Of a stretch of 5,794 bases of DNA, positions 409-5,794 are shown piece by piece (the first letter of the stretch is position 1; every line of letters begins with the position of its first letter). The DNA is from an uncultured Actinomycetes bacterium. GTDB lineage: Bacteria > Actinomycetota > Actinomycetes > Nanopelagicales > Nanopelagicaceae. Made by a program: the position numbers and the translations under genes. The stretch covers positions 1 to 5,794 of the forward strand of contig CAINSH010000178.1 of NCBI GenBank assembly GCA_903852955.1, read 5' to 3'. The notes under the pieces are model-generated. The model had not been told where the DNA came from and searched no databases. It worked only from the letters and a program-made list of their open reading frames with translations.

Positions 409-666
409 TTAAATGATCTTTGCATGGGTTTTAAACAAATCATCAATTAAGTGAGTTCCAGTAAGAACTGTTGGGCCTGCGTCAAAATCATATTCACCAA
501 TTGTGAATTTTCTAGCGCGCCCACCGATAAAGGAATTCTTTTCGACAATGAGCACATTTAAACCTTTTGAAAGCAATCTAATTGCCAATGCAAGACCACC
601 AAAACCACTACCAATAATTATGGCATCCCAGTTTTGGTCCAAATCAAGTTTGGCCTTGCTCTCCAT
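409..666 (-). pseudogene. crtI: Truncated CrtI-type carotenoid desaturase (N-terminal 85 codons only)
   Basis: The 85-aa frame carries the N-terminal FAD-binding hallmarks of CrtI-family phytoene desaturases. These are the Rossmann glycine motif GSGFGG at residues 19-24, the acidic end of beta-2 (VEK, E42), GGRA at 48-51 and DFDAGPTVLT at 60-69. Full-length CrtI, CrtN and CrtD proteins are about 490-510 aa, so some 400 residues with the substrate and C-terminal FAD regions are absent. The frame ends in TAA at 411..409. The next reading frame is a signal-peptide protein, not the rest of the desaturase, so a single frameshift does not explain it. This looks like a 5' remnant left by a deletion or insertion, or a misjoined assembly. 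It cannot be an active desaturase alone. No Shine-Dalgarno precedes ATG 666. Which carotenoid step the parent enzyme performed cannot be told from this piece. Confidence 0.75.
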
Positions 667-754: not shown

Positions 755-2293
755 CTAAAAGCGATTTTGACTTGAAATAGCGGTTTTCCATAACTCATAA
801 AGTGATGTTGACGCCTTTTTGGTTGCGACTAAAATTCCACCAGAGTTTGGAAAGAGATTTACGTTTCCTTCTTCATCCAGAACAACTCCACCTGCCTCGT
901 GCACGATCAAGGTTGCAGCTAGATGATCGATGGGACTGAACTGCCCGATTACTGCACCAATACCGCGTTTTGCAGAAACCCCAACTACTGTGAGAGTTCC
1001 CGAACCCATAATTCGCATTGTGCAATAGTTTTCGGAAAGCGAATCTAAAAGTTGTAACATTCCAGGCCAAGGTCTGTGCGCGGCGAGTTCAGTTGAAACT
1101 ATTCGACCGCTGAGTGGATTTTCAATTTCCCCTTGGTCTTCAATAACTAATTCTTTACCGTTTAATTTTGCTCCGTTTCCTGCTCTTGCTTCAAATAGAG
1201 AACTACGCCAAGGATCAATGACAACGCCAACCAAAGGTGTTTTATTAAAAGCTAAGGCTAAAGAAAAAGAACTCCAAGGCACGAGATTGGCGAAATTAGT
1301 AGTCCCATCTAGTGGATCTAAGTACCAGGTGGGAGTGTCATTTAGATAATTTCCACCTAACTCTTCACCAACAAAATTGTGCCCTGGAAAATTTGTCTCG
1401 ATAACTTCACGCACATGTACTTCAATCATTACATCAACTTGAGTCACGATATCTGCAGGATTGAGCTTGGTTGTGATGGAGCCTGGCTCCATCGACTTAA
1501 TCACCAGCGTGGCCCATCTACCTAAGTCCCGCGCAACTGTCATGGCTCGATCTACATCAATGTCTTCAAGTGACCAAGTTTGTGCAATATCACTCTTAGA
1601 AAAAATGTCAGCTTGTCCAATGGTTAATTGTAATAATTCCAATTCGTTAGTTGTAATCGAGTCGACGCCAATTGCGTGCGCCCAACGCATTGTTGCTTCG
1701 TCATCAACGGTCCAAACTGCAGTTTTTAGTCCAAGTGATCTAAAATCTTCAATTCTCTTCCTAGTCACAAACGAATAATGCAAATTTATATACTCTGGGT
1801 TTAATTCATCGATTTCGAATTGTTCTGGATTTGTTATTTCATTCCATGGCATCCATATCCGGGCGTCTGAAGAAAGTTGGCGAATCTTTTTCATTCCCTG
1901 CAAATTTCCACACCAATAAATCTGATTTAGAGCCAGTGGGCCACTTTTAACTACGTCAAAGGCGGTTTGTGCGGGATCTGCCGCTTCCATGTCAATCATT
2001 AAAATAGTTGAGGTATTTACAAAAAGTTTGAGGACTTCACTTAAAAGCGGAATTCTATTGTCAGCATCGCCAAGACCGGCGATGAATTCCCAATCTCGTT
2101 GAGAAACTAAATCTGACACACCCCATAATCGTTCCAGCGTTGAATCATGCAGAACTACAACTTGATTATCTTTAGTGAGCCTTACATCTATCTCGACAAT
2201 ATCTGCTCCTGAATCAATGGCAGATTTAATAGCAACTATCGTGTTTTCGCGTTGTTTACTAGAGTCGCCGCGATGTGCGCAGGTTATTGTCAT
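755..2293 (-). CDS. Fusion: glycerophosphodiester phosphodiesterase + inositol monophosphatase-family phosphatase
   Basis: This 512-aa protein has two domains. Residues 1-225 are a GDPD TIM barrel: HRGD at 7-10 and HD at 49-50 (catalytic histidines H7 and H49), ENT at 16-18, the metal-binding EID at 34-36, and the late WTVDDEATMRWAHAIGVDSI (194-213). Residues about 240-512 are an IMPase-fold Mg-dependent phosphatase: DIVTQVD at 281-287, GEE at 309-311, DPLDGTTNF at 326-334, D456 in SPIDHLAA, and HEAGG at 465-469. Each half has its family's usual length, so both are probably whole. There is no signal peptide, so it should act in the cytoplasm. GDPDs split glycerophosphodiesters to glycerol 3-phosphate plus alcohol; IMPase-family enzymes release phosphate from inositol phosphates, histidinol phosphate or related monoesters. 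The start lies 9 nt after the ATPase stop with no Shine-Dalgarno, suggesting translational coupling. The usual GDPD E-x-K motif reads DME (101-103). The exact substrate is inferred, not shown. Confidence 0.92.
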   Translation of the reverse strand: MTITCAHRGDSSKQRENTIVAIKSAIDSGADIVEIDVRLTKDNQVVVLHDSTLERLWGVSDLVSQRDWEFIAGLGDADNRIPLLSEVLKLFVNTSTILMIDMEAADPAQTAFDVVKSGPLALNQIYWCGNLQGMKKIRQLSSDARIWMPWNEITNPEQFEIDELNPEYINLHYSFVTRKRIEDFRSLGLKTAVWTVDDEATMRWAHAIGVDSITTNELELLQLTIGQADIFSKSDIAQTWSLEDIDVDRAMTVARDLGRWATLVIKSMEPGSITTKLNPADIVTQVDVMIEVHVREVIETNFPGHNFVGEELGGNYLNDTPTWYLDPLDGTTNFANLVPWSSFSLALAFNKTPLVGVVIDPWRSSLFEARAGNGAKLNGKELVIEDQGEIENPLSGRIVSTELAAHRPWPGMLQLLDSLSENYCTMRIMGSGTLTVVGVSAKRGIGAVIGQFSPIDHLAATLIVHEAGGVVLDEEGNVNLFPNSGGILVATKKASTSLYELWKTAISSQNRF

Positions 2294-2302
2294 AAAGGAA
2301 AC

Positions 2303-3322
2303 TTATTCAACCTTTAGCAATTTTCCGTTTTCATAAATCAAAGCTTTTTTGATTACCGCGTAACCTTTTTCACCAACAGCTGGGATATTGGTGGACATAA
2401 ATGCGCGTAGCTCTGCGTCCTCACGCTTGAGGTAAACCTCACTGAAATGACCTCGGGGAACAACATGGTCCACAGTTGCTTCGAATCCATTACTTTCATT
2501 AGTTGAGGTGAAATGAACGTCTTCTGGGCGGATACCAATAGTTTTGGTTCCGACAGTGACGCGTCCATTCGAATAATCGCCGGTTAAGTGATTGAGGCTT
2601 CCGATAAAGTTTGCAACATATTCAGTTGCTGGGCGGTCATAGAGCTCTTGTGGGCTGCTAAATTGCTCGATTCTGCCGCCATTCATCACTGCAATACGAT
2701 CTGAGATAGAAAGTGCCTCATCTTGGTCGTGAGTCACAATTACTGTAGTAATTCCTAAACGGCGCTGCAAATCGCGAATATCTTCACGGACTTTTACTCT
2801 TAGCTTGGCATCTAGGTTACTGAGCGGTTCGTCCAGCAGTAAAACATCAGGTTCTTGCACAAGTGCGCGTGCCAGAGCAACACGTTGTTGTTCTCCACCT
2901 GAAATTTGGCTTGGGCGTGAATCTTTATGGTGCATTAAATTCACTAATTCAAGAACGTTGTGAACTCGCTTTGTAATTTCTGACTTATTCATCTTGCGAA
3001 GTTTTAATGGGTAGGCAACATTTTTATAAACACTCATGTGTGGCCATAGCGCGTAATTCTGAAAAACCATAGCGCTTGGGCGCTTCTCTGGCCCAGTATT
3101 AGTAACGTCATTACCTGCCAACACAACTCTTCCGGCATCAGGAATCAAGAATCCTGCAATCATTCGCAGCGTTGTTGTTTTGCCACACCCTGAAGGACCA
3201 AGGAGTGAAACCATCTCACCTTTATTTACCGTCAAATTGAGGTCATCGATAATAACTCGCCCTCCTAGGATCTTTTTTAGACCCTGGAGTTCTAGACCGC
3301 CACTACCTGTGGAATTAGACAT
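2303..3322 (-). CDS. ABC importer ATP-binding subunit (PotA/FbpC/UgpC type)
   Basis: This 339-aa ATPase energises the importer from the cytoplasmic face. All nucleotide-binding motifs are present: Walker A GPSGCGKTT at 42-50, Q-loop Q88 (VFQNYALWPH), signature SGGEQQ at 141-146, Walker B VLLLDEP at 160-166, D-loop SNLDA at 168-172 and H-loop H198. After about residue 240 comes a regulatory extension with IGIRPEDV at 262-269, the TOBE-like segment typical of ATPases serving polyamine, iron, sugar, phosphonate or glycerol-phosphate importers. Length and motif order are normal for that class. The motifs do not reveal the substrate. It follows the second permease by 30 nt, has the best ribosome-binding site in the window, and precedes the GDPD-phosphatase by 9 nt. 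It very probably belongs to one operon with both. Confidence 0.95.
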   Translation of the reverse strand: MSNSTGSGGLELQGLKKILGGRVIIDDLNLTVNKGEMVSLLGPSGCGKTTTLRMIAGFLIPDAGRVVLAGNDVTNTGPEKRPSAMVFQNYALWPHMSVYKNVAYPLKLRKMNKSEITKRVHNVLELVNLMHHKDSRPSQISGGEQQRVALARALVQEPDVLLLDEPLSNLDAKLRVKVREDIRDLQRRLGITTVIVTHDQDEALSISDRIAVMNGGRIEQFSSPQELYDRPATEYVANFIGSLNHLTGDYSNGRVTVGTKTIGIRPEDVHFTSTNESNGFEATVDHVVPRGHFSEVYLKREDAELRAFMSTNIPAVGEKGYAVIKKALIYENGKLLKVE

Positions 3323-3352: not shown

Positions 3353-4171
3353 TCATTTGATTTGGAAACCATCTGCCAGTTGGCCACCAATTATGTGCTT
3401 GCGTGCAATAGATATAAGAAGAACTGAAGGAATTGCTAAGAGCAGAGAGAAAACCGCCGCGATCTGTACTGGGTAATTGAGAACAAGAGCATACATTTTT
3501 GTGGGCATTGTGTAGATGGTTGGAACGCCAACTAGATAAGTACCTTGCGCTTCATCAAATGATGCAAGGAAAGACATCACCATTGCCACCAAAATACCTG
3601 GCAATGCCAATCTGAAAGTTATATCCCAAAAAGTTCTTAGCTTTGAAGCCCCTGCATCGCGTGCTGCATCTTCTAGATTGCGTGGCACAGATCCAAATGC
3701 TGCTGCTGGGATCCATGTCATAAAGATGATTGTTCCCAATAACTGAATAATTATTACGCCAACAATGGTTCCCATCAGGTTTAGTGTGTAATACAAGGTA
3801 GCAATTGATGCGTACAAGCCAATCTTTGGAAATGCATTTGCTGCAAACATGCCAATTAAAAAGGATTTACGACCAAAGAATTGATATCTAGAGAATGCAT
3901 AAGCTGCAGGTAAACAAACTACGGCAGATATCAATACAACAATTGGGCTAATCAGTAACGAGTTCTTGACTGACTTAACAAGTTCTTGATCTCCGGCAAT
4001 TGTCTTCCACCAAGTAAACGTAAATCCGTCTGGAAGTAGATTCGGGTATGTCCATGATGTAGCAAATGCATGCACAGCTAGCCAGATAAGTGGGCCCAAA
4101 ATAAACAATGCCATAAAAGCTATAAATGAACTAATGAAGATATTTACGAGGCTGACTTGTTTGCGTGACAT
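3353..4171 (-). CDS. ABC importer permease subunit, PotC-like (second permease)
   Basis: This 272-aa inner-membrane protein has about six hydrophobic segments, at roughly residues 11-36, 71-95, 103-128, 133-158, 188-207 and 235-256. The cytoplasmic coupling (EAA) loop is at about 167-193 (EDAARDAGASKLRTFWDITF, then RLALPGI), where it contacts the ATPase. Length and topology fit the second permease of binding-protein-dependent importers such as PotC or UgpE. Its ATG shares one base with the TAA of the preceding permease gene (TAATG), so the two are translationally coupled and should form a heterodimeric channel. It has no usable Shine-Dalgarno of its own. The substrate cannot be read from the sequence; the neighbouring GDPD-phosphatase suggests a phosphorylated polyol ester. 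Confidence 0.93.
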   Translation of the reverse strand: MSRKQVSLVNIFISSFIAFMALFILGPLIWLAVHAFATSWTYPNLLPDGFTFTWWKTIAGDQELVKSVKNSLLISPIVVLISAVVCLPAAYAFSRYQFFGRKSFLIGMFAANAFPKIGLYASIATLYYTLNLMGTIVGVIIIQLLGTIIFMTWIPAAAFGSVPRNLEDAARDAGASKLRTFWDITFRLALPGILVAMVMSFLASFDEAQGTYLVGVPTIYTMPTKMYALVLNYPVQIAAVFSLLLAIPSVLLISIARKHIIGGQLADGFQIK

Positions 4172-5112
4172 TAGATACGCCCGCTTTGTTTTGCGCTACG
4201 CAAGTTAGCCCATACGTAAAAAATTGCAATTAATGATGCTGCACCAAAAATAACAAAAGCCATTACTACTGATTGTTGCGGGCGATTATATGAATTAAAG
4301 AAATTCGTGATTTCAACCCCAAGCATCGCTGGTTGATTTGGCCCCAAGAAATATGGAATTGTGAACGAGCCCATAATCCCAATTGCTGTAAAAGTCGTTG
4401 CGATTACGATTGGAACAAAAGCTAAGGGCACCATGATTGTATAAATGATGCGAATAAAGCTTGCTCCTGCATCCTGTGCCGATTCAATAAGTGCATCAGG
4501 GATTGCCTGCAAACCAGAGGAAATCATCAGGATTGCGAAGGGTAGAGAAGTCCAAATCGTGCCAATAGCAATCGCTGAATTGGTCATTGTGAGGGTTGGG
4601 AAATCAATTCCAAAATGAGTAAGAAGTGATTTTACAAAACCGGTTCCATCATAGAAAGTTCTTATTGCAAAAGCTGAAATCACTACTGGCACAAAGAGTG
4701 GAATTAGCGAAAGTGATACCAAGATGGTCGCTAAACGGCCTCCGATAACTCTGCGATAAATGGCCATTCCAAGGGCCATGAAAATAACAATCGTGGTTGC
4801 CACAACTGTGACGCCTAAAGTAACCCTTAAGTCGCCGCCAAATCGTGGATCATTTATAACGCTTTTGTATCCGTCAAGGGTTCCCCACCAATGTGTCTTT
4901 GTGGAAATCTCTTGTCCTATCAGAGCGATGATTCTGTTCGGGCCGCCGGTAAATCCAAGGCTTAATCCTGCGGCGATAAGAATTGGCGCACCAACAAAGC
5001 AAATAATTACAAGAACTGGAGGGAGTGCCATAAAAAACCCAAACCAAGAGAGCTTCGCAGTCTTGTTGACTGCAAAGCTCTCTTGGTTATTAATTGAGTT
5101 TGTTTTATCCAT
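4171..5112 (-). CDS. ABC importer permease subunit, PotB-like (first permease)
   Basis: This 313-aa membrane protein has about six helices, at roughly residues 29-51, 97-118, 128-152, 180-202, 226-250 and 282-302, and an EAA coupling loop at about 204-235 (IPDALIESAQDAGASFIR). It pairs with the downstream permease, whose loop has the matching DAGAS core. The gene starts 18 nt after the binding-protein stop, without a Shine-Dalgarno. Codons 9-24 lie inside a 21-bp inverted repeat, so residues N9-W23 are encoded by a hairpin. Met28 (5031..5029), just before helix 1, is a possible alternative start that would leave the hairpin between genes. I kept the longer start because K17, K20 and the KLSW stretch look like a normal basic cytoplasmic N-terminus, but the choice is open. 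Confidence 0.9.
   Translation of the reverse strand: MDKTNSINNQESFAVNKTAKLSWFGFFMALPPVLVIICFVGAPILIAAGLSLGFTGGPNRIIALIGQEISTKTHWWGTLDGYKSVINDPRFGGDLRVTLGVTVVATTIVIFMALGMAIYRRVIGGRLATILVSLSLIPLFVPVVISAFAIRTFYDGTGFVKSLLTHFGIDFPTLTMTNSAIAIGTIWTSLPFAILMISSGLQAIPDALIESAQDAGASFIRIIYTIMVPLAFVPIVIATTFTAIGIMGSFTIPYFLGPNQPAMLGVEITNFFNSYNRPQQSVVMAFVIFGAASLIAIFYVWANLRSAKQSGRI
5032..5088 (-). terminator. Terminator-like 21-bp hairpin in the start of the first permease gene
   Basis: Bases 5042-5062 (beginning AACCAAGAG) and 5068-5088 are reverse complements with one mismatch, separated by a 5-nt loop (5063-5067). In the minus-strand mRNA the mismatch becomes a U-G wobble, so all 21 positions can pair: 10 G-C, 10 A-U and one G-U, with loop AACAA. 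In the mRNA the stem is followed by UGGG and then six U (5037-5032), which resembles an intrinsic terminator. It begins 42 nt after the binding-protein stop codon. Partial terminators or stabilising hairpins after a highly expressed binding-protein gene are known in ABC operons, for example between malE and malF. Here it falls within codons 9-24 of the annotated permease, so ribosomes translating that frame would disrupt it. Its regulatory role is inference. Confidence 0.55.
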
Positions 5113-5130: not shown

Positions 5131-5794
5131 TTACTTTCCTGGAACTTCAATTGCCCATGCTGCCTTCATATCGAAGTCGTTAACAGCAAGGTATGGGGCG
5201 CGCAAAGTAGCAATATCAAGATCAGCAATTGCGGCTGCAACTGTTGCGTCAAGATTTCTAGGTGCAATTACTGGAATACCGTTAAGTGAGCCAGAGACAA
5301 TGAGGTTCTGCGCCGCTGGTGAAAGTACCCAGTTTGCAAGTACACGTGCAGCGTCACGGTTCCTTGAAGCAGATGGGATACCTAGGTAAGCAGGTCCACC
5401 TGTAAGTGAAGGATTTGTGATGCCGTAGTACTTGATGTCTTTAGGCATAGTTCCTGCCTTAAGAGCAGATGCAATTTGATCTGACCATACTGGTGCAAGA
5501 TCTACTAAGCCCTTAGCAAGTAAATCTAATGTTCCAGCGTTGTTAGTTGGGTATGTTCCATTTTGGCCATATGTGTACTTGTTTAGACCACGAAGAACTT
5601 CCCAACCTTTTGACCAATTTGCCTGTACATCTTTGCTCGCAGTGGTCTGAAGTGTCTTGACATCATTTTTTGAAAGCTGGCTGTCTAGAACTGTCTGGAC
5701 AAATGCGCGTCCCGATCCTCCACCTGATGGCGCGTTGTATGTGAACTTGCCAGGGTTGGCTTTTGCCCATGCAAGCACTGCGGCAAGAGTCTTA
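5131..5794 (-). CDS. ABC importer solute-binding protein, YnjB-like (C-terminal part)
   Basis: The frame is open to the right edge, giving 220 C-terminal residues. The GTG at 5778 is an internal valine (context KTLAAVLAWAKANPGKF), not a start. The LLAWAKANPGKFTY-like segment, GRAFVQTVL and the closing region (YLGIPSASRN, then AARVLANWVLSPAAQNLI) resemble the YnjB family of extracellular solute-binding proteins, about 390 aa long. If so, about 170 residues, including the expected lipoprotein or Sec signal, lie outside the window. The product should capture the ligand outside the membrane and deliver it to the two permeases that follow. The family's ligand is not well established, and polyamine- or iron-type binding proteins of the same fold remain possible. 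The operon promoter should lie beyond base 5794. Confidence 0.88.
   Translation of the reverse strand, partial: KTLAAVLAWAKANPGKFTYNAPSGGGSGRAFVQTVLDSQLSKNDVKTLQTTASKDVQANWSKGWEVLRGLNKYTYGQNGTYPTNNAGTLDLLAKGLVDLAPVWSDQIASALKAGTMPKDIKYYGITNPSLTGGPAYLGIPSASRNRDAARVLANWVLSPAAQNLIVSGSLNGIPVIAPRNLDATVAAAIADLDIATLRAPYLAVNDFDMKAAWAIEVPGK

What the first reader, a model, noticed from the sequence alone, without database searches (positions are those of the whole stretch)
5032..5088. Near-perfect 21-bp hairpin with T-run embedded in permease codons 9-24
Two 21-nt arms with a 5-nt loop are complementary except for one position, and that position is a U-G wobble in the mRNA strand but a C-A mismatch in the opposite strand. 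So pairing is complete only in the transcribed RNA, as expected if selection acts on RNA structure. It sits between the binding-protein stop and the first permease helix and is followed by UGGG then six U. It may act as an attenuator setting the binding-protein to permease ratio, with permease translation opening the hairpin. Stem and T-run are seen; the regulatory role is inferred.
Basis: partly seen in the sequence, partly recalled or inferred. Interest (0 to 1): 0.7.

Follow-up and report, generated by a model that had tools for sequence, protein, structure and literature searches.

The report
Conserved RNA hairpin inside permease gene
A 21-base-pair RNA hairpin lies inside the first codons of a bacterial nutrient-importer gene and is kept in its close relatives even though its letters, and the amino acids they spell, change; it likely lets the cell make more of the importer's binding protein than of its membrane channel.

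Summary
The hairpin is real (5042-5088, codons 9-24 of the permease), far from chance (z -8.25), and under selection as RNA. In the window's order, 27 of 28 orthologous permease matches reach the junction, and all 27 (25 distinct) have a long hairpin at the same place in the reading frame. Its sequence changes between genera while pairing stays: 13 of 15 core pairs show two-sided changes, 0 of 500 shuffles reach this, and synonymous recoding almost never folds as stably. Amino acids follow the pairing (Phe with Lys, Leu with Arg). Strong hairpins mark 28 of 32 Pfam-confirmed binding-protein-to-permease junctions surveyed, but 0 of 38 ATPase-to-permease junctions. The six-T run is not a conserved part: it is Gly-Phe-Phe codons, 15 of 25 tails lack five Ts in a row, and Phe codons there are unbiased. 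I favour a decay-barrier hairpin of the malE type over an attenuator; either would raise the binding-protein:permease ratio and no RNA data here separate them. The kind is known (PMC5927463, PMC9045158). Five orthologues outside the order mostly lack the hairpin.

The parts
5042..5088 (-). RNA hairpin: 5' arm 5088-5068, loop 5067-5063, 3' arm 5062-5042 (one G-U pair); permease codons 9-24
   Evidence: covariation; synonymous recoding
5032..5041 (-). UGGG then six U after the stem; Gly-Phe-Phe codons at the start of the first hydrophobic stretch; not conserved as a T-run
4171..5112 (-). first permease gene (BPD_transp_1, 313 aa); its ATG begins 24 nt upstream of the hairpin
5131..5793 (-). 3' part of the substrate-binding-protein gene (SBP_bac_8), stop codon 5131-5133; the gene runs off the contig
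3353..4171 (-). second permease gene (272 aa); its junction has no strong hairpin (control)
2303..3322 (-). ABC transporter ATPase with TOBE_2 domain (339 aa)

Best explanation
Codons 9-24 of the permease gene spell a 21-pair hairpin whose pairing, not its letters, is conserved in all 27 readable orthologous junctions of the order, and in the mRNA it likely acts as a barrier to 3'-to-5' decay that lets the binding-protein message outlast the permease message. Proposed steps, all inferred: the whole operon is transcribed; the distal, less translated permease part is cut and degraded from its 3' end; the exonuclease stalls at the hairpin just inside the permease gene; the binding-protein part survives with the hairpin as its 3' end; binding protein is therefore made in excess over the membrane subunits. 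A ribosome that translates the permease must melt the hairpin, so fully translated messages would be read normally. Partial termination at the hairpin may add to the effect in species, such as this one, that happen to have a T-run.
For: Pairing conserved: 13 of 15 core pairs changed on both sides (shuffle mean 8.5); 93.1% of 375 cells paired against 77.9% in shuffles; 65 two-sided cells against 20.1; 0 of 500 shuffles reach it; sliding the partner by 1-3 columns drops pairing to 28-57%. On a tree built from residues outside the hairpin: 24 pair-keeping two-sided changes, 24 one-sided, 23 breaks. Synonymous recoding: 0 of 300 as stable in 24 of 25 rows, 1 of 300 in L049. Amino acids at one base pair switch together: F-K 11, L-R 10, other 4 of 25 rows. 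Only the junction after the binding-protein gene has it: stem score mean 37.4, minimum 24.0 (n=26) against 13.9, maximum 20.0 (n=26) at permease1-permease2 and 17.1, maximum 23.5 (n=25) at permease2-next. Survey: strong hairpin at 28 of 32 Pfam-confirmed binding-protein-to-permease junctions, 0 of 38 ATPase-to-permease junctions. T-run not conserved. Precedent: E. coli decay-barrier hairpins, 26 of 34 with a stable hairpin and no U-tract, 17 of those 26 inside the downstream coding sequence (PMC5927463, section 7 read).
Against: No RNA data: no 3' ends, half-lives or read depth for this lineage. Intergenic hairpins at other binding-protein-type junctions of the order look more like true terminators (T-score mean 4.03 for 13 loci), and the window's own tail scores 2.96, or 4.08 if the last stem Us are freed, against 2.13 for random 15-mers (90th percentile 2.97). 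Five orthologues from outside the order mostly lack the hairpin: L156 and L158 none, L157 explained by composition, L155 marginal, L159 has one. Four of 32 confirmed binding-protein junctions score under the cut-off of 30, which I set after seeing the scores. The shuffle control does not remove relatedness of the sequences.
Confidence: 0.5

Rival explanations
1. Leaky intrinsic terminator (attenuator): RNA polymerase stops in part at the hairpin and T-run, so fewer transcripts reach the permease genes; permease translation close behind the polymerase could prevent it.
For: Long stem plus six Ts, top terminator-like hit; tested stem-loops after binding-protein genes terminate at 20.7-96.1% in a reporter, including types with few Us (PMC9045158, section 7 read); intergenic hairpins at other binding-protein-type junctions of the order mostly have T tails directly after the stem.
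Against: Runs of five or more Ts occur in only 10 of 25 orthologue tails and start 4-9 nt past the stem; Phe codons there are not biased to TTT.
Confidence: 0.33
2. Translation-level role: the hairpin hides the permease start region or slows ribosomes before the first membrane helix, lowering permease synthesis or helping membrane targeting.
For: The window's ATG begins 24 nt before the hairpin; an in-frame start codon lies upstream of the hairpin in all 25 rows.
Against: A closing helix that would sequester the start codon is not supported (1 of 25 rows at p<0.05). Second permeases of the same operons (n=26) and 38 permeases that follow an ATPase gene have no such hairpin, so it is not a general need of membrane proteins.
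Confidence: 0.1
3. Not an RNA element: a DNA palindrome (protein site or mobile repeat) or a by-product of the peptide sequence.
For: Near-perfect inverted repeat, as mobile palindromes have (recalled).
Against: No second copy of the stem sequence found in this incomplete genome; the two C222 hits lie outside the stem. Stem letters differ between genera; G-U exceeds A-C in the mRNA sense; synonymous recoding loses it.
Confidence: 0.03

Closest known systems
Protective hairpins of differential operon decay, malE-malF type (Dar and Sorek 2018, PMC5927463)
   Same: Stable hairpin at the border between a binding-protein gene and its permease; in most E. coli cases (17 of 26) inside the downstream coding sequence (mean 107 +/- 56 nt in; here nt 25-71); no U-tract needed; conserved in relatives.
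   Different: Different phylum; pairing kept by changing the letters of both arms, with amino-acid changes, where the section read reports wobble-position conservation; the window's copy happens to be followed by T6; decay not measured here.
Internal transcription terminators after binding-protein genes (Wu et al. 2022, PMC9045158)
   Same: Stem-loop directly after the binding-protein gene, long stem, few Us in many, same supposed effect on subunit ratio.
   Different: Theirs are described in intergenic regions of Clostridia; this one is inside the permease coding sequence and its T-run is not conserved.
Ribosome-controlled attenuators (trp type; recalled)
   Same: A translated segment overlaps a hairpin followed by Ts.
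   Different: Those use a leader peptide and an alternative antiterminator fold (recalled); I did not search for these beyond one closing helix, which was not supported.

Membership tests
In-CDS protective hairpin of differential decay (malE type) | stable hairpin at the border of the favoured upstream gene | tested here: met
In-CDS protective hairpin of differential decay (malE type) | structure conserved in relatives | tested here: met
   27 of 27 readable junctions of the order; covariation. Outside the order 1 clear and 1 marginal of 5
In-CDS protective hairpin of differential decay (malE type) | no U-tract after the stem | tested here: inconclusive
   window has T6 after a 4-nt spacer; 10 of 25 orthologues have at least five Ts in a row in the 15 nt after the stem
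In-CDS protective hairpin of differential decay (malE type) | upstream segment outlives downstream segment; 3' ends just after the hairpin | not testable with these tools
   needs RNA-seq after rifampicin and 3'-end mapping
Internal intrinsic terminator after a binding-protein gene | stem-loop immediately downstream of the binding-protein gene | tested here: met
Internal intrinsic terminator after a binding-protein gene | U-rich tract directly after the stem, under selection | tested here: not met
   offset by 4-9 nt where long, not conserved, no codon bias
Internal intrinsic terminator after a binding-protein gene | measured termination in vivo or in vitro | not testable with these tools
   needs transcription assay
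Rfam families | match at or above gathering score | tested here: not met
   none among 4227 families

The most novel reading that the evidence does not exclude
The hairpin is a translation-gated ratio valve: each binding-protein message ends at a stem hidden in the permease gene unless a ribosome has already started on the permease and melts it, so the ratio of the two proteins is set by ribosome traffic, and RNA pairing rather than protein function dictates the amino acids of the permease's N-terminal tail. Actinomycetes would use such stems, inside or just before the permease gene, as a general mark of binding-protein genes.
Probability: 0.2. Interest if true: 0.75.

Novelty: new member of a known kind. 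Interest (0 to 1): 0.5.

Why it matters
Binding proteins of importers tend to be made in excess, and how one operon achieves this is a standing question (PMC9045158, abstract). Here an RNA signal is written inside protein-coding sequence so strongly that amino acids co-vary by base-pairing rules, which gives evolutionary evidence of RNA function without any RNA data. The contrast between junctions after binding-protein genes (28 of 32) and after ATPase genes (0 of 38) makes a simple, testable rule for Actinomycetes, including uncultured lineages rich in such importers.

Tried and rejected
A closing helix between the start-codon region and the Gly-Phe-Phe codons, suggested by single-sequence folds, was tested against shuffled flanks and dropped: 1 of 25 rows at p<0.05. 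A mobile palindrome was dropped: the own-genome search shows, besides the self match and its own inverted match, only two hits, both flanks of the orthologous junction on C222. A start at the ATG after the hairpin was dropped as a family rule because L062, L065, L066 and L067 have no ATG there (L063, L064, L036 and L037 repeat L062), while an in-frame start codon lies upstream of the hairpin in all 25 rows. Rfam gave nothing, plasmid DNA search nothing. The genome-contig scan gave three loci: two whose junctions equal L062 (L036, L037) and a distant permease (L038, 38% identity over part) that I left aside. The script missed rows because its stop pattern was too narrow; searches replaced it. 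In one search twelve or more loci gave no hit and its output was cut; redid the survey from known coordinates. Two upstream ORFs in the survey (L135, L143) were first taken in a wrong frame; the Pfam used the right one, but the hairpin positions were not recomputed for them. Literature searches (listings with abstract starts seen) found the two close precedents; I saw nothing listed on this clade's junctions or on amino-acid covariation in such stems. This covers only the open library searched. One listed abstract (PMC9067536) mentions palindromic RNA candidates overlapping Cas genes; not read.

Full report
What is there. On the minus strand the window carries the end of a substrate-binding-protein gene (SBP_bac_8), two permease genes (BPD_transp_1), an ABC ATPase with a TOBE_2 domain, and a fused GDPD-inositol monophosphatase gene. 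Codons 9-24 of the first permease spell a 21-pair hairpin with a 5-nt loop, 5042-5088. The predicted fold is -47.6 kcal/mol, z -8.25.

Relatives. The window is G000:C178 of a 1.36-Mb, 80% complete, 4.8% contaminated genome in 253 contigs. The two near records of genome contigs are titled only 'uncultured actinobacterium'; that the lineage is the freshwater order Nanopelagicales (acI) is my inference from recall. A search of 296 genomes of the order gave 28 matches at E<=1e-25 in 27 genomes, two of them in G000 itself. One match (G193, L073) is truncated before the junction. The 27 others have a long hairpin at the same place in the permease frame. L063, L064, L036 and L037 repeat the L062 junction, so 25 distinct junctions were aligned (A1).

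Selection on RNA. RNAalifold finds 15 core pairs, 13 with changes on both sides. Counting on that structure: 93.1% of 375 cells paired against 77.9% in shuffles, 13 pairs with two-sided change against 8.5, 65 such cells against 20.1, 0 of 500 shuffles as high on any of five measures; sliding the partner by 1-3 columns leaves 28-57%. That shuffle does not remove relatedness, so I also counted on a tree from permease residues outside the hairpin: parsimony gives 24 two-sided pair-keeping changes, 24 one-sided and 23 breaks over the 15 pairs. Of the 26 unpaired cells, 15 lie in four divergent rows (L062, L065, L066, L067), three of which pair better one column off. G-U cells outnumber A-C cells 33 to 5, or 18 to 1 without those four rows, which places the selection on the mRNA strand. 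Random synonymous recoding with each gene's own codon usage folds as stably in 0 of 300 tries for 24 of 25 rows and 1 of 300 for L049; on the cruder single-stem score the best recoding equals L049 and exceeds L056, L067 and L072. At base pair 104-126 the codons switch together: Phe with Lys in 11 rows, Leu with Arg in 10, others in 4; parsimony places three Phe-Lys/Leu-Arg switches on the tree. So the RNA stem shapes the protein tail.

Where such hairpins occur. In the same operons the binding-protein-to-permease junction scores 24.0-50.5 (n=26, one duplicate included), the permease1-permease2 junction at most 20.0 (n=26) and the next junction at most 23.5 (n=25). From the permease rows that one search listed (its list was cut) I picked 80 loci, mostly the best-scoring ones and not at random: 60 from the own genome and genus, 20 from other families of the class. 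Six had no usable upstream gene. Of 74, 38 follow an ATPase gene (28 by signature, 10 by my reading of P-loop and C-terminus) and none of these reaches score 30. The other 36 gave 31 at or above 30 (15 of 16 and 16 of 20). Pfam confirms a binding protein for 32 of the 36 (not L075, a fragment; L133; L146; L147), and 28 of these 32 reach 30; L088, L140, L143 and L149 do not. Three of the 28 are less clean: in L142 and L144 the stem lies in the first membrane helix and in L153 about 200 nt after the stop. The cut-off of 30 was chosen after seeing the scores; an internal control is that in all 28 no other sampled window of the same locus scores as high. In 11 loci no start codon lies between hairpin and first helix by a mechanical test, so the stem should be coding; of 13 coding or ambiguous stems tested, synonymous recoding reaches the fold in 0 of 300 for 9, in 1, 2 and 4 of 300 for 3, and 17 of 300 for L137. 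These stems were picked as the best of their region, which favours them.

T-run. They are Gly-Phe-Phe codons. Five Ts in a row occur in 10 of 25 tails, and those runs start 4-9 nt after the stem. TTT is not favoured over TTC there (24:13 against 337:243, p 0.49). A T-score (formula recalled) averages 2.48 for these tails and 3.12 if the last stem Us are freed; 13 intergenic hairpins at other junctions of the order (11 with a Pfam-confirmed binding protein), treated in the freed way, average 4.03; random 15-mers average 2.13. The window's own tail (2.96, or 4.08) is at the stronger end. Termination in this species therefore stays possible, but it is not what is conserved.

Limits. Five orthologues outside the order (47-52% identity) mostly lack the hairpin: L159 has one, L155 is marginal, L156 and L158 have none, and L157's is explained by composition. 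So the coding hairpin is a feature of this order's transporter, not of the whole orthologous group. The C222 copy may be a paralogue or contamination.

Known kinds. Dar and Sorek (PMC5927463; passages and sections 7 and 9 read) showed that in E. coli decay-barrier hairpins stabilise upstream genes, that in the five ABC operons they found the stabilised gene was invariably the binding protein, and that 17 of 26 such hairpins lie inside the downstream coding sequence. Wu et al. (PMC9045158; abstract, passages and section 7 read) showed termination by stem-loops after binding-protein genes in Clostridia. A metatranscriptome of acI reports binding-protein expression 1.7-411 times the median for some transporters, but the passages I read do not compare them with permeases (PMC5574706). 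The two passages seen of a Streptomyces griseus study (PMC8914203) had nothing on this junction.

Verdict. Observation confirmed; RNA-level selection shown by comparison within the order; a role in the binding-protein:permease ratio likely from position and controls; decay barrier preferred to attenuator because the T-run is not maintained. All steps of the mechanism itself are inferred.

Noticed in passing
755-2293 (-): A 512-aa ORF fuses a glycerophosphodiester phosphodiesterase domain to an inositol monophosphatase domain and follows the transporter genes; a similar ORF follows the ATPase in L037 (domains there read by eye). It suggests, unproven, that the importer takes up glycerophosphoinositol or a similar diester (one literature search, listed nothing on it).
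   Followed up: partly
L005 / G000:C222:1-3108: The same genome bin holds a second copy of the binding protein and permease (74% permease identity), close to that of G178; paralogue or contaminating strain. Its hairpin has a different sequence at the same place.
   Followed up: partly
L053, L057, L058, L060: In these four rows of the window's genus the predicted fold has a second small hairpin over the GTG start codon of the permease; L050-L056 fold somewhat alike. Conservation was not tested.
   Followed up: no
L075-L081 and L084-L087 (11 loci): Intergenic hairpins between binding-protein-type and permease genes of the same genus, most with T tails directly after the stem, look like leaky terminators.
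   Followed up: partly
409-666 (-): An 85-aa ORF matches only the first 66 of 504 positions of a phytoene-desaturase-type family; a truncated gene or a sequence error.
   Followed up: no
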